In this document: in pieces, positions 40,505-58,991 of the stretch
How positions within the stretch are numbered: the first letter of the stretch is position 1
Layout of the letters: the number at the start of each line of letters is the position of its first letter
NCBI RefSeq assembly: GCF_947495725.1
Contig: NZ_CANLZZ010000008.1
Coordinates: 99,906 to 163,905 of the forward strand
DNA from: an uncultured Lutibacter sp.
Lineage (GTDB): Bacteria > Bacteroidota > Bacteroidia > Flavobacteriales > Flavobacteriaceae
Direction: 5' to 3'
Length of the DNA: 64,000 nt
Program-made: the position numbers and the translations under genes
The notes under the pieces: model-generated
Databases searched by the model: none
What the model was told of the DNA's origin: nothing
The model's input: only the letters and a program-made list of their open reading frames with translations

Positions 40505-40572
40505 TACATCCCTTTAGGATTTTCGTAAGTAGGCTAGAACCAAACAATAAAATATACCAGTTGTTGGCTGTA
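40505..40572. repeat. attC-like site R1 (half site, distal array end)
   Basis: Only the right half of a class A site: GGATTTTCGTAAGTAGGCTA, then the right R box GTTGGCTGTA (40563-40572). The left arm and its stem are missing. It marks where the array was broken. Confidence 0.8.
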
Positions 40573-40575
40573 GTT

Positions 40576-41457
40576 TTATTTAAATATTTTAAAAACTTCA
40601 TATTTTAATAATTCAATTTTTCTATCAGTATCATATTGTTGAGCTAGTTTTGAAATAGCTAATAAATATTCTTTATTTGATCCGCAAACCATTTTGTCAG
40701 CATTAATAAATGCTAAAATATCGACTGAAATTCTATGCGTTGGTTGTAATTCTAATAATTTCTTTCCGTTGGTATGATAAATTATTTTTCCTTTTGATAG
40801 AGGGAAAATTGATTCCGAATTTAATATGTTTTTACAATTCTCATTCCATAAAATTAATGGGTTGTCAGATAATAAATTAAATTGATTCATTCCTTTTTCA
40901 GTATAATACAATTTCCAATTATCAACATTCTTTTTCGTATCTGATTCTATAAAATTCTGAACAGCTCTCATAATTTTGGTGCTTTCTTTGAATGCTGGTT
41001 CATTTAAAATCCTTTCATATATTTCTTTAGAAACATTTTTTCCTTTTTCTTTGTTTTTTAGTGAAAAAAAAGAGTTTTCATTTCCTAAAAATTTTGAATA
41101 ATCTGTTTTGGTATTATCTTGGCTTGGAACTCTCCAATGAGTTGTTGCAATAAATAAAAAAAGGTGTAATAAATCATAAGGTTCAATTAAGATAGGCTCA
41201 AATTTTTCAGTTAATTTCTTGAAGGTTGGAGCAAACATATTTTCTCCAAATTGATATAAATTTTCAACAAAATCGGTTTCTATACCATTTACTTCAAATG
41301 TATTTCTATTCCAATCAAAAAAAACTTGTTTTGGGCTTTTTCGAAGTTTACTTATTTCTCCTTTAGTTTTATCAAATACTGATAATTTTCCATCGTCTCC
41401 TATAAATCCTTTTATAAAAAACTCTGGAATGTAATGATGTCGTTCTGAATTTTTCAA
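40576..41457 (-). CDS. DUF4238 protein (cassette 12)
   Basis: 293 residues. The N-terminal HHYIPEFFIKGF and the segment SDNPLILWNENCKN match DUF4238, a family found in many bacterial accessory regions and suspected to be nuclease-like or defence-related; its activity is unknown. It sits alone in the distal cassette. The stop is 4 bases from the R box GTTGGCTGTA, whose partner TACAGCCAAC is at 41480-41489. Only 31 bases separate the cassette boundary from the start, so no promoter of its own is apparent. Confidence 0.82.
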   Translation of the reverse strand: MKNSERHHYIPEFFIKGFIGDDGKLSVFDKTKGEISKLRKSPKQVFFDWNRNTFEVNGIETDFVENLYQFGENMFAPTFKKLTEKFEPILIEPYDLLHLFLFIATTHWRVPSQDNTKTDYSKFLGNENSFFSLKNKEKGKNVSKEIYERILNEPAFKESTKIMRAVQNFIESDTKKNVDNWKLYYTEKGMNQFNLLSDNPLILWNENCKNILNSESIFPLSKGKIIYHTNGKKLLELQPTHRISVDILAFINADKMVCGSNKEYLLAISKLAQQYDTDRKIELLKYEVFKIFK

Positions 41458-41479
41458 TTTAGCAATTTTTTCAGTTAAT

Positions 41480-41682
41480 TACAGCCAACGGTCTTGTGTA
41501 TGAAACGTAGCGTATAAATAAACACTAACTTTTCGGATTTTGCACGAGCCGAATTTTTAATTTTTATGTTTAATTTCTTTTTCTAAATATAACCAAATTA
41601 AAAATTTGGCGTACTTTATAAAAAAGCAAAAACCTCTCGAAAAGCCTATAATAGCTATGTTTTATACACGTTGTTACCTGGC
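41480..41682. repeat. attC-like site R2 (class D, long)
   Basis: Left R box TACAGCCAAC, spacer, stem GTGTATGAAACGTAGC (41496-41511) pairing with GCTATGTTTTATACAC (41654-41669) through two G-T wobbles, right R box GTTACCTG (41673-41680). Inner hairpin CCAAATTAAAAATTTGG. It shares TAGCGTATAAAT with the attI region at 57744-57755. Confidence 0.85.
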
Positions 41683-41704
41683 TGGTTTTCTTTCCGCAAA
41701 CTTG

Positions 41705-41781
41705 TTAGCGTTGGCGTGAAAGCTCTTTTAAATTTGTGAGGCACGAGCAAACTTTAAATGTGCTTGAACTTGCGTTGGCTA
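41705..41781. repeat. Type C hairpin repeat, left copy
   Basis: Imperfect 17-bp stem AAGCTCTTTTAAATTTG (41720-41736) / CAAACTTTAAATGTGCTT (41748-41765), loop TGAGGCACGAG, ending in GCGTTGGCTA that overlaps the stop of the receiver gene. A compensated second copy lies at 46440-46513; both face the same way and flank the four-gene operon. Confidence 0.75.
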
Positions 41782-42663
41782 TTTTTCCAATTCAGAATTC
41801 AGTAGGTCTATATTTTCCTTATGTTTTAATAAATCTTCTCTCACTTGTTGACAGAAATCTTCATTAAAATCTAAACCATTTTTTCTGTCTCTGAAATATT
41901 GACGTTCACCATCATCAATTAATTCTGCGTGAGCAAACTTGTTCCTAATCAAAATGATTTCTTTTTCATAGTCAGTCATAACAGATTTTATTTCTCCGTC
42001 ACTTAAGTTTCTAACTATTGCTCTCCATCTATGAGAGGCACCAATTGTTCTTAAAATTGAGTCAATATCTTCAACTTTGTCAATGTTTTTATTGAATTCG
42101 TCATTAGATTTTTTGTACTTCTTTTTAATTACAGCTATAATATCATCTGGTGATTTAGAACTTGCTAATATTTTTTGCAGAATATTTTCCATTTCAACAT
42201 CTAAACTGCTTGTCTCGTGCATAATCATTCCACGCATAGCAACGATGTTTTGAAATTTCTTTATTGTCAATTCTATAAGGTTTATAGTAGCTCTCAAAAC
42301 TTCCTCTCTGTGGTCACCAAGAAGTGTATTTGTTTCAAGAAAACTAACTCTACTAATCTTATCGGTATCTTTTAAATCCGCTTTTGCTGTGTAAAAAAGG
42401 ATTTCAGTCATTACAGAATAATCTTGACTACGGATTTTCTTAATCACTTCATCACCATTTATGTCGTTAAGATGATAATCTGTAAGAATAAGGTCAAATG
42501 AATTGTCTAATTTTTTAAAAAAATCTTCTGATTTTGAAGCTGTAATAATTTCAGGCCTAAAACCTTGTTGCGATAAATATTCCGAAACTTCTTCTATGAT
42601 TTCATCCTCAATAAAATCTTTAATTTGGTCATCCAACCATAGTATTTTGTAATCTAGTTTCAT
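41779..42663 (-). CDS. Receiver-domain protein with HEPN-like C terminus (cassette 11)
   Basis: 294 residues. N-terminal receiver: acidic pair Asp11-Asp12 (LWLDDQ), phospho-acceptor Asp62 (LILTDYHL), Thr92 (FYTAKAD). The usual lysine about 17 residues later is not seen (FLETNT). The C-terminal half is helical, has no DNA-binding motif, and contains RNKFAH (Arg240, Asn241, His245), the Rx4H signature of HEPN ribonuclease toxins; a second Rx4H, RGMIMH, is at 144-149. I infer a phosphorylation-controlled RNase effector for the kinase encoded just upstream (4-base ATGA overlap). Catalysis is unproven. Confidence 0.75.
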   Translation of the reverse strand: MKLDYKILWLDDQIKDFIEDEIIEEVSEYLSQQGFRPEIITASKSEDFFKKLDNSFDLILTDYHLNDINGDEVIKKIRSQDYSVMTEILFYTAKADLKDTDKISRVSFLETNTLLGDHREEVLRATINLIELTIKKFQNIVAMRGMIMHETSSLDVEMENILQKILASSKSPDDIIAVIKKKYKKSNDEFNKNIDKVEDIDSILRTIGASHRWRAIVRNLSDGEIKSVMTDYEKEIILIRNKFAHAELIDDGERQYFRDRKNGLDFNEDFCQQVREDLLKHKENIDLLNSELEK

Positions 42664-44939
42664 TTAATCGTTATTTTAATGGTTGTTCCTTCTTTTATTT
42701 TTGACTCTACACTAACTTCACCTTTCAGGCTGTTTTTGACTAGGTCATTTATTTGGAATAATCCAATGCCCGAACCATTCGTTGTAGTAAAACCAAGGTC
42801 GAATATTTTAGTTAGATTCTTTTCTGGTATTCCTTTTCCATCATCTTTAAAAGAAATAATTAGGTTTTTCTTTTGCTCCTCAAAATTTATTTTTAAAGTA
42901 TTTGCTTCAGCTTTTTCTGCATTAGAAATAATACTATCAATAATGGTAGTGATTTCAAGAGGTCTAAATTCTTTGACAAACTCTTTGTTTTCTAAACCTG
43001 TAATAGTCAGACTCATTTTAGTGTCAATGACTTTATCCTCTAATAAATATAGTTCATTAATGTAGTCCTTAATGAAGTCTACTAAATCCATTGTAACTTC
43101 AGAAGCTTTAAGATTGAAATTTGCTTTAGTTACAAAGTTTGCAATTGAATTTATCTTGGAAGCTTCTAATGAAATTATTTTGATGTACTTCTGTGTTTTA
43201 GAATCAATATTTTCTACACCAAGATGTTTAATTAAAAGTTTTAAGTTTCTTGATACTCGACTAGATGAATGATAAATTTGATGTTGAAGACCAACTATTC
43301 TCTCTTTATCTGTTCCAATTAATGACCCTTGAAATGCTCCTTTTTTCTTTTCAGTTTCTAGATTAGTTTCTAGTTCTTCATTTTTGATTAAATTATCCAA
43401 AGCTTCATCTGAAGCTTCGTCAGTTGACTTTTTTAAATCATCAAGGTTTTTTTCAATTTTAGAAATACTATCTACAATAGCATCTTTATCATAATCATCA
43501 CTTTCTAACTGTTTTTTAATTTTAGTTAAAGTGTTTTTAGTTGATTTTTCTTGTTTCTTGTCTACTATTTTAAAAATTTCAGGGGAAACCTCAAAAGAAA
43601 TTAATTCTTTAGATTTAGTAAGGTTAACAACTAATTTTTCTATTGCTTCTTGTTGACTTTGATTATCTAATTTGATATAATCTTCATTTGATAGTTCATT
43701 TCCCCAATCAGTTATATCAATGATATATTTCTCTAGTTTTTTAATTGATGAATAAAACCAATCTACAAGTTCAAAATAGGCTTTCGTTTTAATTAATCCA
43801 TCACCTCTACTTGATGTTTCTTTTAGAAGCTCATTTGGTTCGGCAATTGAAATATAGCCTAATACATCTCTAGTTCCTAAATATCTGCTGTATCCTTGAG
43901 TTTTTCGGTTATCCATTTTGAATGGGTCTTCACCTCTTTCTCCATAAGGATAAATACGTAATCCATTTTTGTAAACAAATACGTGTCCATATTGAATAGG
44001 TTGTGTTCCCATTCTTCTAGTAAAAGTTGATTTTGCAGATTGATTCAAGTGATAAATATGAACGTCTACGTTATCTAAAAATTTGTATGAATTTGATTCA
44101 GTTATTTTATAAACTAATTTTCCTCCTTCAGTTAGACTAGTTACTATTTCACCATTTTCAATTGTACTTATAATTTTTGTGGTCTTAATTTCTAAAGTTT
44201 CGAAAATTAAGTTTTGAATTTCACCATTTACAGTATTTTGGTATTCATTCTCGCTTTTATCATTTTCAATTTCATCAGGAACAATCAATTCTATCTTAAA
44301 CTCGTCACCCTCAATTTGAGTATTAGGGTTAATAAGTTTGGCTAGCGCATCTTTTAAATCTAAAAACTTTTCTTTATTCCAATCACTTTTTAAATTCGTT
44401 ATTTCCAAAACTGTACCGTGCTCAATATTGTAATTACTTTTTACGATAGTTTCGTGAATAACACTAATATTTACAAACTCTTCTTTTAAGTTCCCCTCAA
44501 ACTTATCCCATTCTGTTAATAAAGTTTCAACTTTAGCATTTAACTCATCTTTTATTGTCTCAAGGTATAATTCACCACCAAGTCTATCACAAGAAAATCG
44601 ACCAATCCCTTTTGCTCCAGCATATGCTCTTTTGATTTTGATTTTGTCACGATAATCATAACTATCCTCTTCTGTTCCTTCTTTTTTTGCAGAATAAGCG
44701 ACGAAAAGCCATTTATTAATTAAATCATCATAATTCATTCCTTTGCCATTATCTTTTATTAGAATTTTGGCGTTATCTGAATAAATATCTTCAAAGGTGA
44801 TTTCAACTTTTGTAGCGTGAGCATCATAAGAATTTTTTACGAGCTCAAAAACAGCAATGAAATCATCACTTATTAAATCACTTCCTATGATGTTCTTTAA
44901 TGCAGAACTAATTTTAAATTGTAGTGGTGTTTTCTGCAT
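42660..44939 (-). CDS. MORC-like/histidine-kinase double GHKL ATPase (cassette 11)
   Basis: 759 residues with two Bergerat folds. The N-terminal one (about 20-150: AVFELVKNSYDAHAT, IKDNGKGM, GAKGIGRFSCDRLGGE) resembles MORC/Hsp90-type ATPases of restriction loci. A middle region and coiled coil (about 460-560) lead to a DHp-like helix (GLQHQIYHSSSRVSRNLK) and a C-terminal HATPase (IISNAEKAEANTL, FKDDGKGIPEKN, GSGIGLFQINDLV). It probably senses DNA or phage damage and phosphorylates the receiver-HEPN protein encoded next. Its ATG overlaps the methyltransferase stop by one base. Confidence 0.82.
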   Translation of the reverse strand: MQKTPLQFKISSALKNIIGSDLISDDFIAVFELVKNSYDAHATKVEITFEDIYSDNAKILIKDNGKGMNYDDLINKWLFVAYSAKKEGTEEDSYDYRDKIKIKRAYAGAKGIGRFSCDRLGGELYLETIKDELNAKVETLLTEWDKFEGNLKEEFVNISVIHETIVKSNYNIEHGTVLEITNLKSDWNKEKFLDLKDALAKLINPNTQIEGDEFKIELIVPDEIENDKSENEYQNTVNGEIQNLIFETLEIKTTKIISTIENGEIVTSLTEGGKLVYKITESNSYKFLDNVDVHIYHLNQSAKSTFTRRMGTQPIQYGHVFVYKNGLRIYPYGERGEDPFKMDNRKTQGYSRYLGTRDVLGYISIAEPNELLKETSSRGDGLIKTKAYFELVDWFYSSIKKLEKYIIDITDWGNELSNEDYIKLDNQSQQEAIEKLVVNLTKSKELISFEVSPEIFKIVDKKQEKSTKNTLTKIKKQLESDDYDKDAIVDSISKIEKNLDDLKKSTDEASDEALDNLIKNEELETNLETEKKKGAFQGSLIGTDKERIVGLQHQIYHSSSRVSRNLKLLIKHLGVENIDSKTQKYIKIISLEASKINSIANFVTKANFNLKASEVTMDLVDFIKDYINELYLLEDKVIDTKMSLTITGLENKEFVKEFRPLEITTIIDSIISNAEKAEANTLKINFEEQKKNLIISFKDDGKGIPEKNLTKIFDLGFTTTNGSGIGLFQINDLVKNSLKGEVSVESKIKEGTTIKITIK

Positions 44940-46144
44940 TAGGATATAAGCTGTTTTAAAATTAAACCTGCTTGTTCTCCAAACAATGGCGGAATTGCAT
45001 TTCCAATTTGTGAATATCTTGGAACTTCTTGAGTTCTTCGTTTTCCTCCAGTAGTGTATTTTCCTTTGAACTCATATGTGTCTGGAAAAGATTGTATTCT
45101 CGCATATTCACGAACAGTCATAATTCTAGGTTCGCAATAATGAATATAGTCATCAGGTAATGTCGTAATCGTAGGTGTTGGTTTGTTAGCTTCAAGGATT
45201 TTTGTACTACTTTTTTTAAGTTGAAACCTTTCTCTATATGCTGAACTTGTTAGATTTTCATCCAATGCAATTTTAAACCTAGCTTTTACTACATCTGTAT
45301 GTTTTGCAAATCTATGACTGTCAACTTTACCATTCTTTCTTTTATATTTTCGGACAAATTTTTGATAATTTGATAAAGCTTCTCCATAAATTCCTTCATT
45401 AAATTTTGGTGTTTCAGATGCGATGACACCATTAGATTGTAACAAGTCAGAAATTGCATTTTCTAATGTTGGATTGAGAGTAAGATTTTTACTTACTAAA
45501 AAAGATTCTTTATTTTCTTGAATTCCATTAAAAAAGCTTTCCTTATTTATAGATGGATTTTCTTTGATAAAATCATTTTGAATACCAACTAAAATAAATC
45601 TTGTTCGTTTTTGAGGGATTCCATATTTAGAAAAATCGATTAATTGACCTTTAACAGAATATCCCAAATTCTGTAGTTGTTCAACTACATATGTAGAGTA
45701 TGCTTTGCCTTTTTTGTCATTATTTTTAAAACCAAGAGTAAAACCTTTTACATTTTCAAAAAATATTAATTTTGGTTTTACATAGTCTATAAATTTTATA
45801 TAGGAATTAATTAAGTCATTTCTAGAGTCATTTTCTATTCTTCTACCAGCCATTGAAAAACCCTGACAAGGTGGACCACCTGCAACCAAATCTATTTTTC
45901 CGCGTAACTCAATTAGGTTTTTAGAATTATTTTCTAAAATTTCATTTATATCGTGGTGTTTTTGCTCTAACCAATTTGGCCAATCAAAGTGCTTTTTCTT
46001 TTTGATTAGATTATGCTCAAGAGTTTTAAATGCATCTTCACTTTTTTCAATTGCAAAAGCACCTTTCCATCCTGCGTTATGTAAACCGAGAGAAAGTCCT
46101 CCACAACCAGAAAACAAGTCTATATATTTTTTAGAATTACTCAT
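44939..46144 (-). CDS. DNA (cytosine-5-)-methyltransferase (cassette 11)
   Basis: 401 residues. The C5-methyltransferase motifs are present in order: I (DLFSGCGGLSLG), IV with the catalytic Cys93 (GGPPCQGFSMAG), VI (FFENVKGF), VIII (QKRTRFILVG) and X (QIGNAIPPLFGEQ). It would methylate a specific DNA sequence, as a self-protection mark, or without a restriction partner. No restriction endonuclease is in the operon; the kinase and HEPN-like protein take that place. The start is adjacent to the regulator stop. Confidence 0.93.
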   Translation of the reverse strand: MSNSKKYIDLFSGCGGLSLGLHNAGWKGAFAIEKSEDAFKTLEHNLIKKKKHFDWPNWLEQKHHDINEILENNSKNLIELRGKIDLVAGGPPCQGFSMAGRRIENDSRNDLINSYIKFIDYVKPKLIFFENVKGFTLGFKNNDKKGKAYSTYVVEQLQNLGYSVKGQLIDFSKYGIPQKRTRFILVGIQNDFIKENPSINKESFFNGIQENKESFLVSKNLTLNPTLENAISDLLQSNGVIASETPKFNEGIYGEALSNYQKFVRKYKRKNGKVDSHRFAKHTDVVKARFKIALDENLTSSAYRERFQLKKSSTKILEANKPTPTITTLPDDYIHYCEPRIMTVREYARIQSFPDTYEFKGKYTTGGKRRTQEVPRYSQIGNAIPPLFGEQAGLILKQLIS

Positions 46145-46360: not shown

Positions 46361-46377
46361 TTAATTTGTGTTTTACG

Positions 46378-46385
46378 CAAATATA
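46378..46385 (-). promoter_or_regulatory. -7 box of the four-gene defence-like operon
   Basis: On the minus strand TATATTTG, a perfect TAnnTTTG. Transcription would begin near 46371, 10-20 bases before the regulator start. It gives this cassette its own promoter, unlike most others in the array. Confidence 0.65.
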
Positions 46386-46439
46386 TTAACTTATTGCTAA
46401 TAATGTTTACATTTCAGAAGATATTTTCCATATGAAAGA

Positions 46440-46513: not shown

Positions 46514-46522
46514 TTTCAGCTT

Positions 46523-46661
46523 GCAGGTAACGGTTTTGTGTATGGTTAGTTGCGTGTTTAAGCAACTAATTTAGTAAACAAAAACGAACGCGAGAAAATT
46601 CCGAAGGAATTTTCCAAGTAGGCAACGACCAAAGCAATTAATTATACACGTTGTTGTGCTT
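46523..46661. repeat. attC-like site R3 (class A)
   Basis: Left R box CAGGTAAC (46524-46531), 6-base spacer, stem GTGTATGGTTAGTTGC (46538-46553) pairing with GCAATTAATTATACAC (46634-46649) with three G-T wobbles, spacer GTT, right R box GTTGTGCTT (46653-46661). Inner hairpin GAAAATTCC-GAA-GGAATTTTC. Confidence 0.88.
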
Positions 46662-46664
46662 TCG

Positions 46665-47432: not shown

Positions 47433-47454
47433 TGGTTATTGGTTTCTGATAATG

Positions 47455-47592
47455 AAGCACAACGGGTTTTTATAAGATTTGTGCGACTGGAAAATCGGAG
47501 ATTTTTCGGTTGTAGCAAATCGTTTGTTGAATGTTTGTCGGTTCGTTATTTAGTTTAAATGTGAGCATAAATTTTATGAGGTGTTAGCCACA
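47455..47592. repeat. attC-like site R4 (class B)
   Basis: Left R box AAGCACAAC, spacer, stem TATAAGATTTGTGC (47471-47484) / GCATAAATTTTATG (47565-47578) with three G-T wobbles, right R box GTTAGCCACA (47583-47592). Inner hairpin GGAAAATC-GGA-GATTTTTC. Confidence 0.88.
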
Positions 47593-47593
47593 G

Positions 47594-48830: not shown

Positions 48831-48971
48831 TGTGGCTAACGTGATTGTGTATGGTTAGTTGCGTGTTTAAGCAACTAATTTAGTAAACAAAAACGAACGC
48901 GAGAAAATTCCGAAGGAATTTTCCAAATAGGCAACGACCAAAGCAATTAATTATACACGGTGTTGTAAGCA
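48831..48971. repeat. attC-like site R5 (class A)
   Basis: Left R box TGTGGCTAAC, spacer GTGATT, stem GTGTATGGTTAGTTGC (48847-48862) / GCAATTAATTATACAC (48943-48958), spacer GGT, right R box GTTGTAAGCA (48962-48971). It is nearly identical to R3 in the core but has different R boxes. Confidence 0.9.
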
Positions 48972-49975: not shown

Positions 49976-50175
49976 TGCTTACAACGTCTCGGCTATGGTT
50001 AGTACGGGAATTAAAAGTAGTGAACTTTCGATTAAGCACTTAGCCAAAACTTTTTATTTTGTTTTATCTTTTTTGTTCAAAACCAAATCAAAAGATTTGG
50101 CGGATATTATAAAAACACACTAAACTTTGGATTAAACACCAAAACCCGTATTAATTATAGCCATTGTTGTGGTGC
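49976..50175. repeat. attC-like site R6 (class D, long)
   Basis: Left R box TGCTTACAAC, spacer, stem GGCTATGGTTAGTACGGG (49991-50008) / CCCGTATTAATTATAGCC (50145-50162), 18 bp with three G-T wobbles, right R box GTTGTGGTGC (50166-50175). Inner hairpin CCAAATCAAAAGATTTGG as in R2. Confidence 0.9.
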
Positions 50176-51758: not shown

Positions 51759-51774
51759 TTCGTTTTTTTTATAT

Positions 51775-51910
51775 GCACCACAACGGGTTAGAGCATGAAA
51801 AGTTGCGGGTTTGAAAACGCAATTTTCAGCTGTTTAAAATTATGTTTTTTATTTGTTTTAAATATCATGTTAGTTAGAAATAAGCAATTTTTTATGCGCA
51901 TTGTTGGCTA
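51775..51910. repeat. attC-like site R7 (class E)
   Basis: Left R box GCACCACAAC, 8-base spacer, stem GCATGAAAAGTTGC (51793-51806) / GCAATTTTTTATGC (51884-51897) with two G-T wobbles, spacer GCATT, right R box GTTGGCTA (51903-51910), which overlaps the OLD stop codon. Confidence 0.88.
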
Positions 51911-53821
51911 TTGGGCATTTTGTTCAAAACTATCAATCTTAAGGTAAAGCTTTTCAATTAAATCTTTTAATCGTGAGCAATCTTCAATTTTTGCTTTTGA
52001 TTTAAAATCTAAACAGAATTTTTCAGAAAGTTTGAATTTTAATGAATCTAACTTTTGCTTATTAGTTTTCAGAATATGCGATTGATTTTTTAATTGATGA
52101 ATAATCGGTTTATTCACTTCAAGATTAAATGATTCATCCATTTCTTTATCAAAATAATTTTTCACAAACTCTAAAGGGAGTAGATCTTCAATTGTACTAT
52201 CATTTGGTAATTCTGATAATAAGTCTTTCAGAGTGAATAAGTTTGAACCTGAATAAGAATCTGATTGATTCTTTAAAATTAATTTTTTATTATCTCTCCC
52301 TTCTTTGTCAGAATCAAGTAAGATAAAAGCTGATATTTTTTCTTCATTGAGTAATCTTGCAAATCCTGGAGTTTTACTAGCTCCTCCAGCTGATTTTATA
52401 GAATAGAAAAGTTTATTTTTTAAAATATTAAGAGAGTGTGAAATGATATTTTTATCATCATTTCCTTCAACAATTATTATGTTTTTAGGTAGTAGCTCTT
52501 TGAAAAGGTTTAATCCAAAAGCTGAAGTAAGTACAGTATCATCTTCAATATTTGCGTCTTGACTTATTTGAGAAATTCTGGTTTCAGATTTTTCTTTTTT
52601 TACTAACCAATGCCTTTCAGGTGTTTCTGTATCAATCATATAGTGGCTATGAGTGGAAACTAGAACATTATTATTTTTTCCAATTTTCAGGATTTCATCT
52701 CTCATATATCTAACTCCGCTTGGGTGTAAATGAACCTCTGGTTCGTCAATTAGAATAATTCTGTTTTTAAGATTGTTGCTTTCGTTTTGTGCAGATAATG
52801 ATAATATTAAAGATACAAATTGCTTAAAACCATCACTCCTTTGATTCATTGTATAATATGCGAATTTTTTATCTTTATCCTCAATCTGAACTTGACATTT
52901 GGAAGCGTTAATTGATATCCTAATTTTTATTTTATGCTCTTTCCATATACGGTTAATGTGTCTTGTAATTTTATCTGTCATTTTTTCCTGCAATTCATCT
53001 CTTCTTGCTTGATTGCTTAAGGCTCTTTCAATCGTATATTTAATATCTTCATCTTTGGTTTTACCATAGATATTAAATATATTTTTTAGGGGAATTGAAA
53101 TATCTGTATCCTCTTTAAATTTTTCTAGATCAATTACATCATTTATTAAATATTTTGAACTAGATCTCCAGATTTGGATTTTTGGCAAATTATGATTTAA
53201 AACAGTTTTTAAAGATGATGAGATTTTATTTTCCAGAATTGATTTTGTAAGTAGTTTCTGATTCTCTGAAAGAAAAGATTTTGCGTTTTTTTCGGTTATT
53301 TCTTCTTCTATTTCATTGTAATCTTTTAATAATTCTATCGTTTCTTTTTTAGTTGTTTTATTAGCTACTGTTACTGATGAAGTATTAATTATATATTGAT
53401 AAAAAGGTAAATCTGAATTTATAGTTATACTGTAATTTTCATTTGAACCTTCTGAATTTATGTAGGTGTTTTTTTGTAATTTAAGAAATTCAATTTTGTT
53501 AGAAAAGTCTTCGCTAACACCAATTTTTTCAGTTATTTGTTTTCTCCAAAAGGGAATGTGTGTTAACTCTAAATTTGTATATAAATCTATATATCCATTA
53601 TCTTCTTGAGCTTCAAGAAAGCAGTAGTCTTCATAATCAATTGCTGACATTCCTTTGCTAATTAAACTTATAGCTTCTAGGATTGCACTTTTTCCACTTT
53701 CATTCATTCCTACTAAAAATAAGGTGTTGCTTTTCTTTGAACCATCGCCATAAGTTTCAATAGGAATTGTTATATTTTTTATACTTCTGAAATTTTTAAT
53801 GTTAATTGATTTAATTTTCAT
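51908..53821 (-). CDS. OLD-family ATPase/TOPRIM nuclease (cassette 6)
   Basis: 637 residues. Walker A GMNESGKS (38-45) near the N terminus, Walker B around 352-362 (ILIDEPEVHLHPSG), and a C-terminal TOPRIM nuclease domain (IIIVEGNDDKN near 443-452, and FILLDSDKEGRDN). Overcoming-lysogenisation-defect nucleases cut phage DNA, sometimes with a partner; no Gabija-type helicase is in this cassette, so it acts alone or with others. The TAG stop lies inside the R box GTTGGCTA; partner TAGCCAAC is at 53859-53866. Confidence 0.92.
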   Translation of the reverse strand: MKIKSINIKNFRSIKNITIPIETYGDGSKKSNTLFLVGMNESGKSAILEAISLISKGMSAIDYEDYCFLEAQEDNGYIDLYTNLELTHIPFWRKQITEKIGVSEDFSNKIEFLKLQKNTYINSEGSNENYSITINSDLPFYQYIINTSSVTVANKTTKKETIELLKDYNEIEEEITEKNAKSFLSENQKLLTKSILENKISSSLKTVLNHNLPKIQIWRSSSKYLINDVIDLEKFKEDTDISIPLKNIFNIYGKTKDEDIKYTIERALSNQARRDELQEKMTDKITRHINRIWKEHKIKIRISINASKCQVQIEDKDKKFAYYTMNQRSDGFKQFVSLILSLSAQNESNNLKNRIILIDEPEVHLHPSGVRYMRDEILKIGKNNNVLVSTHSHYMIDTETPERHWLVKKEKSETRISQISQDANIEDDTVLTSAFGLNLFKELLPKNIIIVEGNDDKNIISHSLNILKNKLFYSIKSAGGASKTPGFARLLNEEKISAFILLDSDKEGRDNKKLILKNQSDSYSGSNLFTLKDLLSELPNDSTIEDLLPLEFVKNYFDKEMDESFNLEVNKPIIHQLKNQSHILKTNKQKLDSLKFKLSEKFCLDFKSKAKIEDCSRLKDLIEKLYLKIDSFEQNAQ

Positions 53822-53858
53822 TCTGGAGCAATTTTTTATTAATTTTTTTGTCGCCTTG

Positions 53859-53994
53859 TAGCCAACGTTGTTGTATATGGTTTGTTGCGTGGTTTAAGCA
53901 CTAAATTTAGCAAATAAAAACCGAATAGAAAATCCGCGAGGATTTTCGTAAGTAGGCTAGAACTAGCAATAAATTATATACGGTGTTGTAAGTT
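53859..53994. repeat. attC-like site R8 (class A)
   Basis: Left R box TAGCCAAC, spacer GTTGTT, stem GTATATGGTTTGTTGC (53873-53888) / GCAATAAATTATATAC (53966-53981) with three G-T wobbles, right R box GTTGTAAGTT (53985-53994). Inner hairpin GAAAATCC-GCGA-GGATTTTC with a GNRA-type loop. Confidence 0.9.
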
Positions 53995-53999
53995 GTTTT

Positions 54000-54845
54000 T
54001 TATTTTATTTCCTTGTTTATTCGATTAACTATTCTGTCTCTTTTTCTTTCCCAAGTTGAGTTATTTAGAATATTTTTTATACTAAATAAACTTTCGATTT
54101 GTCCTTTAAATTGAGTTAATGCTGATGTATCATTTATTTCAAATCCTTGAGTTAACGGAATTACTCCTTTAATATCTTTAAAAGACAAAGGTGGAATTAA
54201 TATCGGAATATGAGTGTTAGTTTTCATCCAAGTTGCTCCCATTTCGCACAAACAAACAGGACTTTGATAAAAGTTTTCTGATAAAATAAATAGTACAAGT
54301 GCATTATTATCTAATTCGTTTTTTATTCTCTCTAAAAAGTTATCTCCATAGTCAATTCCATAACCATTAAAAGAAGTGCAAAATATTTGAGTACTATTTA
54401 AACCTATAGATTCCAAAATTTCTATAACTTCCTCCACAATTGCAGAATCTTTTGAAGAGTGACTGATAAAAATCTTTGTTATTAAATTATTATCTTCTAG
54501 TTCATTACTTTCTTCGATTTCTGGAATAGTTCCTAACTCTTCTTTAAATTCTTCTAGATAATTTTCTATTGATTGTATTAATGTATCAAAGCTCCTTTTG
54601 TAATAATTTCTATGAGTTTGACTATAATCTTGACCTCCAATTTTCATACCTCTATAATGAAATTCTAGGGTATTAAGTTGTTTAACTTCCACAGATTTTT
54701 CTCCAAATAGTTTTACGAATGTTCTCTCGACTAAATTTTTCCAACTTTTAAATTTTGGATTACTATCTGATTCAGATTGAATTTCTTTTGATTTTTCAAT
54801 CAATTTATTTAGTAGTTCTATTTTTCTTTCAATCTTGATGTTCAT
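54000..54845 (-). CDS. TIR-domain protein (cassette 5)
   Basis: 281 residues. A helical N-terminal domain (1-115) precedes a TIR domain (about 123-240) with KIFISHSSKD and Glu201 in VCLCEMGATW, the position of the catalytic glutamate of NADase TIRs. Such proteins deplete NAD or make signal nucleotides during phage infection. No obvious partner (such as a Thoeris ThsA) is in the same cassette; adjacent cassettes hold OLD and PLD genes. Start is 24 bases from the boundary. Boxes are GTTGTAAGTT / AACTTACAAC. Confidence 0.9.
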   Translation of the reverse strand: MNIKIERKIELLNKLIEKSKEIQSESDSNPKFKSWKNLVERTFVKLFGEKSVEVKQLNTLEFHYRGMKIGGQDYSQTHRNYYKRSFDTLIQSIENYLEEFKEELGTIPEIEESNELEDNNLITKIFISHSSKDSAIVEEVIEILESIGLNSTQIFCTSFNGYGIDYGDNFLERIKNELDNNALVLFILSENFYQSPVCLCEMGATWMKTNTHIPILIPPLSFKDIKGVIPLTQGFEINDTSALTQFKGQIESLFSIKNILNNSTWERKRDRIVNRINKEIK

Positions 54846-54860
54846 AGGTTTTGGTTAAAT

Positions 54861-54995
54861 AACTTACAACGTGATTTTATATGATTTGTGCGACTGGAAA
54901 ATCGGAGATTTTTCTGCCGTAGCAAATCGTTTGTTGAATGTTTGTCGTTAATGTTAGTTCGAATGTAAGCATAAATTATATGAGGTGTTGGCAAC
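54861..54995. repeat. attC-like site R9 (class B)
   Basis: Left R box AACTTACAAC, spacer, stem TATATGATTTGTGC (54878-54891) / GCATAAATTATATG (54969-54982) with G-T wobbles, right R box GTTGGCAAC (54987-54995). Confidence 0.88.
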
Positions 54996-55001
54996 TGGCT
55001 T

Positions 55002-55520
55002 TTATTTTTTTAATCTCGTTCCATAATTCAAATTCTCAAAATATTCTAATTGTCTCTCAAATAAAAATCCATTTGCGATAAACTCCATTTCGTATTTTTC
55101 CGTGTCAATTATTAGTCTCATATTTTTAATAGAATACTCAGAAATATATATTTTGAAATATCTCGCTGTCAAAATAGAAACTCCCAGTTTTAAAAGAATC
55201 CACATAGGTGAAAATGGAAAAGGATTAATTCTTTCCTCGCCTCTGATTAATTCAATTCTATTTATCTCATTTTTCGTAAGTGGAATTGCACTCAGTTCAT
55301 TGGAGAAATTTAATCGTAATAATATTCCGTTAGAATATTTCTCAAAATTACTTTTTGAATCAATTTTTATTATCTCAGAATTGTCAGTTTTATTTATAAA
55401 TGACTTTAAAAAATAAGAACCATTTCCTATAGTTTTAGGTTTTCTAAACCCAAATTTATTCGGTTTACCAATCAAATTTTCTATTTTGTGTTGGTTTATA
55501 TTCTTTTCAGTTAGAATCAT
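55002..55520 (-). CDS. Unknown protein (cassette 4, second gene)
   Basis: 172 residues, beta and helix mixed, no signal peptide visible and no family recognised. The first part (GKPNKFGFRKPKTIGNGSYF) is basic. It follows the 70-residue gene by 11 bases and shares its cassette (boxes GTTGGCAAC / GTTGCCAAC), so the two probably work as a pair. Confidence 0.65.
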   Translation of the reverse strand: MILTEKNINQHKIENLIGKPNKFGFRKPKTIGNGSYFLKSFINKTDNSEIIKIDSKSNFEKYSNGILLRLNFSNELSAIPLTKNEINRIELIRGEERINPFPFSPMWILLKLGVSILTARYFKIYISEYSIKNMRLIIDTEKYEMEFIANGFLFERQLEYFENLNYGTRLKK

Positions 55521-55531
55521 TTATCCTCTTT

Positions 55532-55744
55532 TTACCAATTGAGTGAAATAAAGATTACTATTAATAAAACTATTGTCGCATAAAATCCAACTTTGCCATT
55601 TTTTGCTTCAGTCTCAGTTTTATTTTTGACATTCTCTGAAGTATAAATCTTAAATTCTAAGAAATAAGAACTGAAAGGTTTGTAGTTTCCAAATAGAGAA
55701 TTATAACAAAATCTTAATGTTGCACCTAATAATTGAAGAATCAT
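55532..55744 (-). CDS. Small membrane protein (cassette 4, first gene)
   Basis: 70 residues, ending in a hydrophobic helix (about 50-68, GFYATIVLLIVIFISL). The N-terminal half holds a hydrophobic segment too. It may be a holin-, toxin- or anchor-like small protein for the next gene, but this is speculation. Start is 48 bases from the boundary. Confidence 0.6.
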   Translation of the reverse strand: MILQLLGATLRFCYNSLFGNYKPFSSYFLEFKIYTSENVKNKTETEAKNGKVGFYATIVLLIVIFISLNW

Positions 55745-55784
55745 TTATCAATAATCTTTTTAATAATTATGTTTTTCATCGCTT

Positions 55785-55921
55785 GTTGCCAACGGTTTTT
55801 TATAAGATTTGTGCGAATGGAAAATCGGAGATTTTTCGGACGTAGCAAATCGGTTTGTTGAATGTTTGTCGTTTTAGTTTAAATCAAATTTAAGCATAAA
55901 TTTTATGAGTTGTTGTATACT
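55785..55921. repeat. attC-like site R10 (class B)
   Basis: Left R box GTTGCCAAC, spacer, stem TATAAGATTTGTGC (55801-55814) / GCATAAATTTTATG (55894-55907), right R box GTTGTATACT (55912-55921). Confidence 0.88.
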
Positions 55922-55928
55922 GTTTTTT

Positions 55929-56312
55929 TTACTCATTCAGTAAATTTGTCTCATTCTTAATGTATTTTGCTCCTTTTTGTAATTCCTCAATATTTATCAT
56001 TCCGTTATATCCATAAAAGTTAATCGTTGAATCTTTCTTATGAACTAAAACAACAATCGGTTGTCCAGAATTTAAATATAAATCAATATTTTTTTCTCCA
56101 CCTCTGAAAGGTTCTTTTTCTCCTAAATAATAGAAATATTCAATATCTCTTACTCTCGAAGAATCAAAAGGGCTTGAGCTCTGTTTAACTTTAGTAATTA
56201 CTCCTTGTACCTCATTAAATTCATTCTCGTTATAATCCTCATATTTCTTTTCTCCACAAGAGTAAATCAGTCCAATAAATAATAGTAAAATCAGATAATT
56301 ATTCTTTTTCAT
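55929..56312 (-). CDS. Lipoprotein, unknown function (cassette 3)
   Basis: 127 residues. Lipobox IGLIYSCGEK (Cys19), then a small mostly beta domain with GEKEPFRGGEKN and PIVVLVHKKDST. No family recognised. Boxes GTTGTATACT / AGTATACAAC. Start is 59 bases from the boundary. Confidence 0.68.
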   Translation of the reverse strand: MKKNNYLILLLFIGLIYSCGEKKYEDYNENEFNEVQGVITKVKQSSSPFDSSRVRDIEYFYYLGEKEPFRGGEKNIDLYLNSGQPIVVLVHKKDSTINFYGYNGMINIEELQKGAKYIKNETNLLNE

Positions 56313-56362
56313 TTTTAATCTTTCTACAATTTTTATTTTTTACTAAATGTTCGTTTCAAAAT

Positions 56363-56498
56363 AGTATACAACGGGTTTTTATATGATTTGTGCGACTGGA
56401 AAATCGGAGATTTTTCGGACGTAGCAAATCGTTAGTTGAATGTTTGTCGTTAATGTTAGTTCGAATGTAAGCATAAATTATATAAGGTGTTATACACA
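56363..56498. repeat. attC-like site R11 (class B)
   Basis: Left R box AGTATACAAC, spacer, stem TATATGATTTGTGC (56380-56393) / GCATAAATTATATA (56471-56484), right R box GTTATACACA (56489-56498), which contains the stop codon of the next cassette gene. Confidence 0.88.
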
Positions 56499-57029
56499 GG
56501 CTTTTAAATTCCGTTTAAATGTCTCAATATTTTTCCTATTTCCTCCAAATGAAAAATTTGAAAGAATATTATTCGGGTTTTCAATGCTATTTATCAATAT
56601 TAATCTGTCTTTTTTTAGAATAGTGACTCTTTCTCCAAAACCGATCAAACTAGATTCAGACACTCCGGAAAAATAGTTCTTACTTTTATCAAGTTTTTTC
56701 CATTCAAGTTCTTTTATTGTAAATTCAAGAGCTTTCTCAAATCTATTATTGTCATTATCAATCTCTATCGTTTTAAACTCTAGATTTTTATACTTTATTA
56801 TAAATATTATTATTGAAATCAAGAAGAGAACAATCGGTAATCCAATCCCATCAATTACTCTATCGTAACTAATTTGGTCATTTCTTATGATACTCGATAT
56901 TAGGAAATATATATTAAGAATTGGAACAACTGAAATTACTATTGCAGGTGAATAGTGAAGATATAATTCAACCATAGTTAAAGTCAATCTATTATTTTCG
57001 GCTATTTTAGATATATCTTTTTCTTTCAT
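56490..57029 (-). CDS. Membrane protein, unknown function (cassette 2)
   Basis: 179 residues with two transmembrane helices (about 27-48 and 65-85) and a C-terminal soluble region (about 90-179) resembling a PH-like beta domain (KTIEIDNDNNRFEKAL and GFGERVTILKKDRLILI). No family assigned. Boxes GTTATACACA / TGTGTATAAC; the TAA stop is within the first box. Start is 30 bases from the boundary. Confidence 0.68.
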   Translation of the reverse strand: MKEKDISKIAENNRLTLTMVELYLHYSPAIVISVVPILNIYFLISSIIRNDQISYDRVIDGIGLPIVLFLISIIIFIIKYKNLEFKTIEIDNDNNRFEKALEFTIKELEWKKLDKSKNYFSGVSESSLIGFGERVTILKKDRLILINSIENPNNILSNFSFGGNRKNIETFKRNLKACV

Positions 57030-57050
57030 TAATTAGAGTTGTTACTCGCT

Positions 57051-57187
57051 TGTGTATAACGTGATTGTGTATGATTAGTGGCGTGTTTAAGCACCTAATT
57101 TAGCAAATAAAAACCGAATAGAAAATCCGCGAGGATTTTCGTAAGCAAGCTAAAACTAGCCATTAATTATACACGGTGTTGCCAACA
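57051..57187. repeat. attC-like site R12 (class A)
   Basis: Left R box TGTGTATAAC, spacer GTGATT, stem GTGTATGATTAGTGGC (57067-57082) / GCCATTAATTATACAC (57159-57174) with two G-T wobbles, right R box GTTGCCAACA (57178-57187). The T-A to G-C pair near the base of the stem, relative to R3 and R5, is a compensatory change. Inner hairpin GAAAATCC-GCGA-GGATTTTC. Confidence 0.9.
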
Positions 57188-57192
57188 GTATT

Positions 57193-57642
57193 TTATTCCA
57201 CTATTAATTCATTCGGTATTTCATAAGTTGCAGAATATTGTAAATTCTTTCCTCTTTTTTTAAATTCAGAAAATGCTTCTCGATACCATTTCGGGTCATT
57301 TGGTTCAGCATTTAGTTGTTCGTGAACTCTAACACTATAAAAATCTCCATTCAGCCAAGGTTCAATTCCGTAAATTCCAATTCCGTTTTTTTCCACTCTG
57401 TTCAGAACAATGTCAAAGTCAGATTCAGAAAAGTAATATATCGATTCAGAGTCGAATCCGTCATTCAAATTTTTAAGCCCGAAGAATATTTTCGATTTTA
57501 AGAATTCCTCCTTTTTCAATTCTAAATTTTGAGTTTCTTTATTCAATTCCGTTTTTATTTCGTTTTCAGATTGTTTCTTTTCCTTGTTTACACAACTTAT
57601 AATTAAAAGACTAAATATTGTTATGGAAACTGCTTTTCTCAT
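57193..57642 (-). CDS. Lipoprotein, unknown function (cassette 1, next to the integrase)
   Basis: 149 residues. Lipobox LLIISCVNKE (Cys17), a charged coiled linker, then a small alpha/beta domain (RVEKNGIGIYGIEPWLNGDF, VRVHEQLNAEPNDP). No family recognised. Boxes GTTGCCAACA / TGTTGGCAAC. The start is only 11 bases from the boundary, so it must use an outside promoter. Most recently inserted cassette by position, if insertion occurs at the integrase side. Confidence 0.7.
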   Translation of the reverse strand: MRKAVSITIFSLLIISCVNKEKKQSENEIKTELNKETQNLELKKEEFLKSKIFFGLKNLNDGFDSESIYYFSESDFDIVLNRVEKNGIGIYGIEPWLNGDFYSVRVHEQLNAEPNDPKWYREAFSEFKKRGKNLQYSATYEIPNELIVE

Positions 57643-57654
57643 ATTGTTGGCAAC

Positions 57655-57809
57655 TCTGTTATATGTTCATATTAAATACACTTATCCCTAATAAATGTCG
57701 GGATAAGGTGAATAAATGTACATGTTATTAATTTTTAAATTCATAGCGTATAAATCTAACATTCAAATGTAAAAAATATGATGAATTAATGCTATGACTA
57801 TTATCATTT
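57655..57809. promoter_or_regulatory. attI-like region and candidate cassette promoter
   Basis: The interval between the integrase stop and the first cassette boundary. It contains TCATAGC (57741-57747) / GCTATGA (57791-57797), a second hairpin CTTATCCC / GGGATAAG near 57681-57707, and TAGCGTATAAAT (57744-57755) shared with R2. On the minus strand a perfect TAnnTTTG box, TACATTTG, lies at 57764-57771, pointing toward the cassettes. It is not a symmetrical attC, as expected of an attI. Confidence 0.65.
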
Positions 57810-58991
57810 TTAATTATTTTGGTTTAATTTTAAATTCTCTGCTTTATTCCCATTAAATTTAAACTTCTTTACTGCTACATCTAACGGATTATTTATTTTT
57901 TCCAAACTACTTGTTGAAACATGGGTGTAAATCATGGTGGTTTCAGGCTTATTATGCCCTAAAAGGGTTTGAATCAATCTAATATCAGTTCCGTTTTCTA
58001 ACAAATGTGTAGCATAGCTATGTCTTAAAGTGTGTGGTGTTACTGTTTTTGTGATGCCTGCAAGTTTGCACGACTTTCGTAAAAATGCTCGAACGCTGCT
58101 CGCCGTATACTTATTTCCTGGTGTGCCTTCGGCAAAATATATAATAGGATTATAAGTTCTAATATAATTGTTTATTAACGGAGTTAAACTTACAGCCATA
58201 TTAACATATCTGTCCTTTCTTCCTTTACTATTTTTAATAGCTATTTGATAGCGATGAACATCAATATGTTGTAATTTCAAATTAATAAGTTCTCCAACCC
58301 TTAAACCACACGAATAGATTAATGCTATAATAGCTCTATGCTTTAGATTTTTTGTAACTCTAAGAATTTCTAATATTTCAGGTTGAGATAAAACAATTGG
58401 CAAAAATTTCGATTTCTTAGGCCTTATTAAATTCAACGCTTCTATCTTAGATTCCGGATAAAAAGCTATAAATAATTTCATAGCACTAATAAATTGTCTG
58501 TGTGTACTAATACTATATTTTTTTGGAATAAATACATCTTCAATAAACAATTCCACATCTCTATTAGTTAATGTGTTAAGTGGTTTTTCTTTAATGTATT
58601 TTAAAAAATCAGCTATAAAAATAGAATATGTTTCAACGGTACTTTTGCCATACATTCTGCCTTGTAGGTATTTTACAAAGGCCTCTAATATATTTTTATT
58701 ATAATTACTTAAACTTCGTGCTAACTTTATTGTATTGTTTTTTGGAGCACTATATAAAGAGTCATCTTCTTTTATAGTTGTTAAATGACTAAAAGATTTT
58801 CTTACCGACTTTAAATTTTCTTGATTAAATTTTCCGTGCCAACATCTTCTGGATTTACTCCATTTAAACTTTCCAATATTTCTAATTATTAGAAGCAATT
58901 GATCGTTATACTTAAAAAATAGAAGTATAGAATCAATATTGTTTATTACATCTCTTTTAAGTGTGATAATAGGTAATAAGTTATTTTTCAT
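57810..58991 (-). CDS. IntI/Xer-like tyrosine recombinase of the cassette array
   Basis: 393 residues. Residues about 20-70 (NIGKFKWSKSRRCW) form a HARP-like N-terminal extension. A SAM-like core-binding domain (about 95-180, STHRQFISAMKLF) and a catalytic domain follow: Arg231 (SCGLRVGE), Lys256, His320-xx-Arg323 (TPHTLRHSYATHLL), His346 and Tyr355 (TTMIYTHVS). STHRQ, LPIVLS, AGITK-x-x-TPHTLRHS and the end NPLDVAV resemble integron integrases closely. However, Arg231 to Arg323 is 92 residues, as in XerD, so the IntI-specific insertion (spacing about 134 in IntI1) is absent. It is co-oriented with and upstream of the cassettes. Confidence 0.92.
   Translation of the reverse strand: MKNNLLPIITLKRDVINNIDSILLFFKYNDQLLLIIRNIGKFKWSKSRRCWHGKFNQENLKSVRKSFSHLTTIKEDDSLYSAPKNNTIKLARSLSNYNKNILEAFVKYLQGRMYGKSTVETYSIFIADFLKYIKEKPLNTLTNRDVELFIEDVFIPKKYSISTHRQFISAMKLFIAFYPESKIEALNLIRPKKSKFLPIVLSQPEILEILRVTKNLKHRAIIALIYSCGLRVGELINLKLQHIDVHRYQIAIKNSKGRKDRYVNMAVSLTPLINNYIRTYNPIIYFAEGTPGNKYTASSVRAFLRKSCKLAGITKTVTPHTLRHSYATHLLENGTDIRLIQTLLGHNKPETTMIYTHVSTSSLEKINNPLDVAVKKFKFNGNKAENLKLNQNN

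What the first reader, a model, noticed from the sequence alone, without database searches (positions are those of the whole stretch)
40505..58991. Flavobacterial integron-like cassette array
Twelve one-to-four-gene modules in one orientation are separated by related hairpin sites next to a tyrosine recombinase. The organisation is that of a chromosomal integron, yet the sites are longer (135-203 bp) with 8-10 base specific boxes, the recombinase is Xer-length, and the recombinase is co-oriented with the array. I know of integrons mainly in Proteobacteria and a few other phyla; whether this form has been described I cannot check.
Basis: partly seen in the sequence, partly recalled or inferred. 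Interest (0 to 1): 0.95.

Follow-up and report, generated by a model that had tools for sequence, protein, structure and literature searches.

The report
Integron-like arrays with Xer-type recombinase
This flavobacterium carries a row of twelve gene cassettes, each with two mutually complementary ends, beside a DNA recombinase that lacks the part defining integron enzymes, so it is likely a gene-capture system that works like an integron but is predicted to run on a different enzyme, and relatives of the set-up occur in many other Bacteroidia.

Summary
Window 40434-57705 holds 12 same-strand cassettes, 12 hairpin sites and an attI-like site beside a 393-aa tyrosine recombinase. The key fact: the two end boxes of each cassette are complementary over 8-10 nt (12 of 12), while the boxes within a site agree over only 3-5 nt (permutation 0 of 200,000). 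Integron cassettes are built that way. A box-blind test agrees: 195 of 284 intervals exact, 1.3% expected. In a congener, recombinase and attI are conserved, homology ends within the first cassette's box, and no cassette is shared at DNA level. The site helix covaries (13 of 17 pairs). The recombinase lacks the ~40-aa IntI-specific insert (102 of 102 testable rows) and lies outside the IntI clade. Canonical IntI occurs in 1 of 295 class genomes, this recombinase family in 152. Two features have no counterpart known to me: A.C mismatches bracketing the box, and several attI-like sites, each upstream of one or more sites, in a genome with one close recombinase. Recombination itself is untested.

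The parts
57810..58991 (-). tyrosine recombinase, 393 aa; extra N-terminal domain (~1-90), SAM-like core-binding domain (~101-177), catalytic domain (~202-360)
   Evidence: Pfam PF00589 3e-37, PF13495 3.6e-16; NCBIfam XerA 210 bits (cut-off 220), integron integrase TIGR02249 199 bits (cut-off 265); AF2 pLDDT 85.7; 58 of 149 genomes of its family at E<=1e-60
57652..57705 (-). attI-like site TATCCCG...CATATAACAGA|GTT at the recombinase-proximal end of the array
   Evidence: ATATAA within 12 nt before the first box in 21 of 41 loci not chosen for it, background 0.65% of GTTs; conserved with G698, where homology ends in the first box
57178..57654 (-). cassette 1: ORF 57193-57642, 149 aa, no family
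   Evidence: end boxes complementary, 10-nt run
57058..57180 (-). recombination site 1 (attC-like hairpin)
   Evidence: model R1 110.2 bits; fold z -4.3
56489..57060 (-). cassette 2: ORF 56490-57029, 179 aa, no family over its cut-off
   Evidence: end boxes complementary, 10-nt run
56370..56491 (-). recombination site 2
   Evidence: R1 58.4 bits
55912..56372 (-). cassette 3: ORF 55929-56312, 127 aa, no family over its cut-off
   Evidence: end boxes complementary, 10-nt run
55791..55914 (-). recombination site 3
   Evidence: R1 46.6 bits
54987..55793 (-). cassette 4: ORFs 55002-55520 and 55532-55744, no family over its cut-off
   Evidence: end boxes complementary, 9-nt run
54868..54989 (-). recombination site 4
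   Evidence: R1 46.3 bits
53985..54870 (-). cassette 5: ORF 54000-54845, TIR domain, SpbK-like candidate anti-phage protein
   Evidence: end boxes complementary, 10-nt run; TIR_2 6e-12; PADLOC spbK 5e-43
53864..53987 (-). recombination site 5
   Evidence: R1 108.3 bits
51903..53866 (-). cassette 6: ORF 51908-53821, OLD-like AAA ATPase plus TOPRIM
   Evidence: end boxes complementary, 8-nt run; AAA_15 9e-27, OLD-like TOPRIM 1.5e-5; PADLOC Old 7e-30
51782..51905 (-). recombination site 6
   Evidence: R1 74.7 bits
50166..51784 (-). cassette 7: ORF 50187-51758, weak PLD-like match, below the Pfam cut-off
   Evidence: end boxes complementary, 10-nt run
49983..50168 (-). recombination site 7 (long form)
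   Evidence: R1 52.4 bits
48962..49985 (-). cassette 8: ORF 48976-49875, CarboxypepD_reg-like domain
   Evidence: end boxes complementary, 10-nt run
48838..48964 (-). recombination site 8
   Evidence: R1 99.5 bits
47583..48840 (-). cassette 9: ORF 47594-48811, 405 aa, no family
   Evidence: end boxes complementary, 10-nt run
47461..47585 (-). recombination site 9
   Evidence: R1 45.1 bits
46653..47463 (-). cassette 10: ORF 46665-47432, DUF6090; recurs in another array of the same genome (contig C10)
   Evidence: end boxes complementary, 9-nt run; 89% DNA identity over 966 nt, from about the 5' box to the CCGTT after its 3' site
46529..46655 (-). recombination site 10
   Evidence: R1 105.9 bits
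41673..46531 (-). cassette 11: four genes, 46145-46360 HTH, 44939-46144 C5 cytosine methyltransferase, 42660-44939 double HATPase (weak BbrUII-like), 41779-42663 receiver domain; restriction-modification-like
   Evidence: end boxes complementary, 8-nt run
41487..41675 (-). recombination site 11 (long form)
   Evidence: R1 52.6 bits
40563..41489 (-). cassette 12 (terminal): ORF 40576-41457, DUF4238
   Evidence: end boxes complementary, 10-nt run
40434..40565 (-). recombination site 12, terminal, degenerate
   Evidence: R1 25.2 bits, E 0.0023

Best explanation
This is a chromosomal array of gene cassettes built like an integron's, and the neighbouring Xer-type tyrosine recombinase, which lacks the integron-specific insert, is predicted to insert and remove the cassettes at a nearby attI-like site. 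SHOWN: each cassette has complementary 8-10-nt ends; each is followed by an asymmetric hairpin site of a type whose helix covaries; the array lies in the recombinase's orientation beside an attI-like motif shared with relatives; homology between cassettes of different loci can start and stop at the GTT boxes; a congener has different cassettes in the same place. INFERRED: the recombinase cuts at G^TT; an excised circle rejoins its two end boxes, so that one strand of it folds into a full hairpin with a 10-bp stem; that folded strand recombines with attI (insertion) or with another site (excision). The conserved A.C mismatches and the unequal central spacer would mark which strand and which end is used, the role that extrahelical bases have in attC. 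INFERRED too: the one recombinase serves the other attI-like sites of the genome in trans, and a promoter in attI may drive the first cassettes. Some cassettes carry candidate anti-phage genes, so a likely benefit is a store of defence genes.
For: Within-cassette complementarity 12 of 12, within-site 3-5 nt, permutation 0 of 200,000. Box-blind, cross-trained scan of 111 sequences (window included): sites in 70; 358 of 359 sites downstream of the recombinase; 195 of 284 intervals match 6/6, permuted 1.3%. Of 56 loci with >=3 kb downstream, 41 have a chain of >=3 cassettes downstream and 0 upstream; letter-permuted control 0.25 (L072 repeats L032). Upstream stretches were often shorter, but in the 18 loci with >=9.9 kb on both sides it is 15 downstream, 0 upstream. 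Model R1: 110 of 110 hits in 27 family loci are on the recombinase's strand and downstream, none in a canonical Vibrio integron (the model was trained partly on such loci). Helix: 88.5% of cells paired vs 69.5% shuffled and 27-38% slid; 13 of 17 pairs change on both sides; G.U almost absent, which fits folded DNA. Detector positive control: 12 canonical Vibrio cassettes, runs 9-13. Congener G698: 81% identity over HU, recombinase and attI, ending in the first box. Cassette 10 recurs in another array of this genome. A cassette shared by two genera (L033, L048) is homologous from CCGTT to CCGTT, including its 3' site. A lone cassette with the full signature sits in a lytic Polaribacter phage.
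Against: No excision, circle or strand transfer has been observed. Some homologous cassettes keep gene and boxes but carry a different inner site (L061_16 vs L078_0, L048_9 vs L066_0, L048_3 vs L120_2), which a crossover at G^TT alone does not give. Sites occur in 76 of 91 genomes of the family without a close recombinase at E<=1e-60, so another enzyme could act on them; that threshold also misses diverged relatives. Two genomes with the recombinase (G062, G127) show no site. 89 of 284 box-blind intervals are not exact, 36 of these with one mismatch; those matching at fewer than 5 of 6 positions are longer (median 1871 vs 651 nt), as missed sites would make them. Fifteen of the 56 loci had no chain of >=3, and 41 of 111 sequences gave no box-blind site (many stop soon after the recombinase). 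Folding the window's sites beats shuffles clearly in some (z -4.8) and weakly in others (-1.1). The attI-like motif is missing in about half of the loci tested, where other sequences stand before the first box (20 of 41 without ATATAA). Plasmid relatives L164-L167 give no chain of 3 at 9 nt.
Confidence: 0.87

Rival explanations
1. It is an ordinary integron whose IntI has diverged and lost the insert, that is, a new member of the integron family.
Against: Below the TIGR02249 cut-off of 265; insert absent in 102 of 102 testable family rows, present in 15 of 15 IntI rows; the 10 IntI rows of the tree form one clade (100/100, stem 2.95) with no family row inside; XerA scores slightly higher by profile. 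The tree is not rooted, so a common ancestor with IntI is not excluded.
Confidence: 0.12
2. The sites work as double-stranded palindromic recombination sites, not as folded single strands.
For: Inverted-repeat covariation alone would also fit a dimer binding double-stranded DNA; attI itself shows no long hairpin.
Against: The end boxes vary freely (164 different 10-mers among 335 cassettes) yet are complementary within the cassette (box-blind); the helix has conserved mismatches and unequal spacers; both are hard to explain without strand folding.
Confidence: 0.12
3. The arrays are moved by another enzyme in trans (for example the host XerC/D pair or an IntI), and the neighbouring recombinase is a bystander.
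For: Many genomes have sites without a close recombinase. Two putative attC sites of Polaribacter phage P12002L were tested with IntI1 and one recombined (PMC9892861, passages); I did not show that they are of this type.
Against: Where arrays are found beside it, the recombinase is at the same end and in the same orientation, often with the same attI-like motif; canonical IntI is nearly absent from the class.
Confidence: 0.06
4. The hairpins are dispersed repeats (REP- or MITE-like) that happen to lie between genes near a recombinase.
For: Similar sites occur at several places in the genome.
Against: Complementarity of boxes hundreds of bases apart, uniform orientation, attI heads, cassette boundaries.
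Confidence: 0.01

Closest known systems
Chromosomal integrons (IntI/attI/attC; Vibrio integron L051 as control)
   Same: Cassettes in one orientation from an attI-like site; AAC/GTT boxes; cassette ends complementary over 9-13 nt in the Vibrio control and 8-10 nt here; R-L-variable-L-R hairpin with an unequal central spacer; many sites per genome (up to 135 in ten genomes counted).
   Different: Recombinase without the IntI insert and outside the IntI clade; array on the 3' side of the recombinase and co-oriented with it; A.C mismatches bracket the box; several attI-like sites in a genome with one close recombinase.
Xer recombinases, especially XerA (PDB 5hxy, 4a8e)
   Same: Closest by profile (210 bits) and by Z (21.6 and 20.8, with poor rmsd) over residues ~96-373.
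   Different: Extra N-terminal domain; associated with cassette arrays; the genome has two other, Xer-length recombinases (312-313 aa; L053, L054).
CALINs (attC clusters without integrase)
   Same: Groups of sites away from the recombinase in the same genome.
   Different: Most of those groups follow an attI-like site (9 of the 10 best attI hits, window included, lie upstream of a site).
IntI in inverted orientation (Treponema-type; recalled, not checked)
   Same: Integrase and cassettes transcribed the same way.
   Different: Those enzymes are IntI; this one is not by the insert test.

Membership tests
Integron (IntI-based) | IntI-specific additional domain around patch III of the integrase | tested here: not met
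   Motif spacing 65-68 residues in 102 family rows (10 of 112 rows lacked a motif) vs 108-109 in 15 IntI; alignment of 9 family and 15 IntI rows. Called a defining characteristic in PMC9668308 (passages) and essential for integron function, though not fully conserved in the integron-like subgroup, in PMC8138268 (passages).
Integron (IntI-based) | Integrase falls in the IntI clade / passes TIGR02249 | tested here: not met
   199 bits vs cut-off 265; IntI monophyletic 100/100 with no family row inside, 61 rows (39 of 112 family rows, 10 of 15 IntI rows used)
Integron (IntI-based) | attI-like insertion site next to the integrase gene | tested here: met
   Motif before the first box in 21 of 41 loci, background 0.65%; homology with G698 ends there. 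Activity not tested; about half of the loci have another sequence there.
Integron (IntI-based) | attC: R''-L''...L'-R' with AAC/GTT and pairing of the cassette's own ends | tested here: met
Integron (IntI-based) | G|TTRRRY heptanucleotide | tested here: not met
   22 of 335 boxes and 0 of 12 in the window; but only 1 of 12 in the canonical Vibrio control, so the test discriminates poorly
Integron (IntI-based) | Conserved extrahelical bases on the R''-L'' arm | tested here: inconclusive
   Conserved A.C mismatches seen (93% at L+0/R-1, 51% at two inner positions); helix register varies between sites
Integron (IntI-based) | attI x attC and attC x attC recombination by the integrase | not testable with these tools
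   Bench assay needed
Xer recombinase | Xer sequence and fold | tested here: inconclusive
Xer recombinase | Acts on a dif site for chromosome dimer resolution | not tested
   No dif search was made

The most novel reading that the evidence does not exclude
Bacteroidia own a second, non-IntI class of integron: an Xer-derived recombinase that arrived independently at folded-strand cassette exchange, reads A.C mismatches in place of extrahelical bases, and from one gene feeds many attI sites scattered round the chromosome. It would replace the canonical integron in that class and show that the IntI insert is not needed for cassette recombination.
Probability: 0.5. Interest if true: 0.95.

Novelty: new variant of a known kind. 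Interest (0 to 1): 0.86.

Why it matters
Integrons are held to depend on IntI and its extra domain. A widespread cassette system with complementary cassette ends and attI-like sites but no such domain would show that folded-strand cassette capture has more than one enzyme solution, or that the insert is dispensable. It would also explain how marine and other Bacteroidia, where canonical IntI was found in only 1 of 295 sampled genomes, could gather and reshuffle small accessory genes, including phage-defence genes, and would give a new set of cassette recombination sites for genetics. Integrase-based annotation may miss it, since the enzyme fails the TIGR02249 cut-off.

Tried and rejected
Dispersed-repeat reading: rejected. 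First chain detector at 8 nt without paired arms was too loose on long sequence (a control chain of 10) and was replaced by 9 nt plus paired arms (control maxima mostly 1-2, one of 4). Compensatory box changes between homologous cassettes (33 of 34 changed 3' positions changed at both ends) are NOT used as evidence, because the detector demands complementarity in both cassettes; the box-blind scan replaces them. Folding energy of circle versus junction (circle lower in 217 of 227) is likewise partly by construction. In-57 positions 4-9 are complementary by selection; positions 10-14 are free. The 29 attI rows of A5 were partly picked by the motif itself, so the unselected count is used instead; one picked row (L045) was left out of A5. 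First AF2 model (20 close rows) was poor in the catalytic domain (mean pLDDT 65) and was replaced. The N-terminal domain was not searched alone, so its fold is untested. A tblastx of G698 against window cassettes gives many short hits scored as sums; the longest outside the sites is the HTH of cassette 11 (43% over 76 aa), so a distantly related restriction-modification-like cassette may exist in both. No empty phage site: P12002S carries the same stretch (97.6%). A -7-like TAnnTTwG (recalled motif) occurs in 14 of 29 attI rows, 12 at one offset, shuffled mean 2.1; no -33 element was sought, so a promoter stays a guess.

Literature: ten searches of the open library listed no paper that I recognised as being on this system in Bacteroidia; two listings were cut (20 of 116, 12 of 129). 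Subscription papers and preprints are not held, so absence from print is not shown. Bacteroidota are named among integron-bearing phyla (PMC8618304 and PMC9668308, passages), but I could not see whether any of those are of this type. A lead from memory, repeats on a Microscilla plasmid, could not be checked.


Full report
What is there. The window lies in a 4.24-Mb genome of 29 contigs. On the - strand, from a recombinase at 57810-58991 down to 40434, twelve modules of one to four genes are separated by hairpin sites. A covariance model of the site (R1, 37 training rows, 4 from the window) finds 12 sites in the window, all on the - strand and all in the array.

The decisive pattern. Each module starts (gene sense) with GTT plus about seven variable bases and ends with their complement plus AAC. 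The two ends of one module pair over 8-10 consecutive bases in 12 of 12, while the two boxes that make up one site agree over 3-5 bases in 11 of 11; 0 of 200,000 permutations of box partners reach the observed sum. This follows if every module has been a circle cut at one point inside a self-complementary site, as integron cassettes are. PMC2727003 (passages) states that most canonical cassettes self-pair over 9-11 nt, and the same detector finds 12 cassettes with runs of 9-13 in a Vibrio integron.

Is it general? Of these 111, 56 have at least 3 kb downstream; 41 of the 56 show a chain of three or more cassettes downstream, none upstream, and 0.25 per letter-permuted control (L072 repeats L032 and has no such chain). 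Since that detector uses complementarity, I repeated the test without it: a site profile trained on half the loci and applied to the other half (gene-sense strand only; window included, L072 left out) finds 359 sites in 70 of 111 sequences, 358 of them downstream of the recombinase; of 284 intervals between neighbouring sites, 195 have 6/6 complementary box positions and 36 more 5/6, against 1.3% exact under permutation. R1, on both strands of 27 family loci, gives 110 hits, all on the recombinase's strand and all downstream (24 of 27 loci hit), and none in the Vibrio integron.

Cassettes come and go. Congener G698 has an 87% identical recombinase. Window 57642-59803 (HU gene, recombinase, attI) aligns at 81% in one piece; the alignment ends about 10 nt after the first GTT, inside the box, and beyond it only the site repeats match (blastn, hits of 100 nt or more); G698 has 12 detected cassettes of its own there. 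One of them may be a distant protein-level relative of cassette 11. Within the own genome, cassette 10 recurs in contig C10 at 89% over 966 nt: the match runs from about the 5' box to the CCGTT of the next cassette, its 3' site included. Between loci, 14 cassette pairs are shared among 335 cassettes from 54 loci, several only in part; the cleanest, L033_0 and L048_7 (two genera), runs from CCGTT to CCGTT at 93%. In others the gene and boxes are shared but the inner site is of another type; I cannot explain that by one crossover point. A lytic Polaribacter phage carries a single cassette with a site (E 1.2e-10), matching boxes over 10 nt, the mismatch at position 11 and pairing after it.

The site. 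In gene sense it reads AAC-A-nn-G-t-n-TATAA-...-ATTGC ... GCAAC-...-CaTA-naC-...-C-GTT. Arms covary, mostly in one register. On 37 sites, 88.5% of cells pair against 69.5% shuffled and 27-38% slid, 13 of 17 pairs change on both sides, and G.U pairs are nearly absent, as expected of folded DNA rather than RNA. The 10-bp box is bracketed by A.C mismatches: at position 11 the pair is A.C in 279 of 335 and A-T in 8 (box-blind, 170 of 195 exact intervals), followed by renewed pairing at 12-14 (86, 87, 79% against 55, 43, 44% permuted); on the inner side A opposite C in 93% of 164 distinct sites, and 51% at two more places. The 12 Vibrio control cassettes show no fixed mismatch at position 11. Strand-marking by these mismatches is inference.

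attI. Before the first box, ATATAA lies within 12 nt in 21 of 41 loci not chosen for it, against 0.65% of all GTTs in the same sequences; 16 of these 21 also have TATCC about 50 nt upstream. The rest, mostly other branches of the family, have other sequences there. A sequence-only model from 29 rows, the window's among them, finds in the own genome ten hits with E < 0.1; nine lie 0.5-2.4 kb upstream, same strand, of an R1 site, the tenth (C5:35982) does not, and only the window copy is beside the recombinase. One close family recombinase with several attI-headed groups of sites is unlike the single attI of canonical integrons as I know them.

Spread. Recombinase at E<=1e-60: 31 of 38 genomes of the genus, own included, 58 of 149 of the family, 152 of 295 of the class by profile (arrays were not checked there). 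Canonical IntI: 1 of 295 in the class, but 84 of 296 in a phylum-wide sample. R1 sites: 132 of 149 genomes of the family, including 76 of the 91 without a close recombinase and excluding two with one. Ten genomes that I picked hold 13 to 135 sites each.

Cargo. A TIR/SpbK-like protein, an OLD-like ATPase and a methyltransferase with an HATPase partner suggest defence; six of the twelve cassettes have no family over its cut-off, counting the weak PLD-like one.

Verdict. It is organised like an integron in the sequence tests of cassette ends, site helix, orientation and attI; it is not an integron by the enzyme tests, and the GTTRRRY and extrahelical-base tests do not decide. I file it as a new variant of a known kind. 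Whether it evolved independently is open.

Noticed in passing
G000 contigs C10:3688, C5:377563, C5:271110, C5:276211, C5:283274, C9:17143, C1:180775, C2:513733 (loci L168-L173): Further attI-like sites, each followed on the same strand by one or more sites of the window's type; no relative of the recombinase was found by tblastn (E<=1e-3) in the fetched stretches L168-L173.
   Followed up: partly
L174 14503-15197 (Polaribacter phage P12002L): A lone cassette with matching end boxes in a lytic phage; the near-identical phage P12002S has the same stretch.
   Followed up: partly
L061_16/L078_0, L048_9/L066_0, L048_3/L120_2: Homologous cassettes with the same gene but a different type of inner site, not explained by a single crossover point.
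   Followed up: no
window 57681-57707: The attI-like region contains an inverted repeat CTTATCCC...GGGATAAG, also seen before one other group of sites in the genome (L169).
   Followed up: no
L165 and L166 (Chryseobacterium plasmids): Relatives of the recombinase (41% identity) on plasmids, with same-strand genes downstream and weak site hits (five in L165, one in L166 at E<=0.05); possible mobile versions.
   Followed up: partly
L161 and L163: Shorter relatives of the recombinase (about 41% identity) lie beside erm(F) in a Flagellimonas plasmid and beside blaVEB-3 in a Klebsiella plasmid.
   Followed up: no
L068-L147: 52 of 80 named loci end within 3 kb downstream of the recombinase, while 60 of 80 have 9.9 kb or more upstream, as if the arrays broke the assemblies.
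   Followed up: no
L061, L066, L067 and L102, L133, L138: Other branches of the family have a different sequence with a palindrome just before the first GTT.
   Followed up: no
window 59405-59809: An HU-HIG gene upstream of the recombinase is inside the stretch conserved with congener G698; HU hits next to two more distant recombinases (L110, L112).
   Followed up: no
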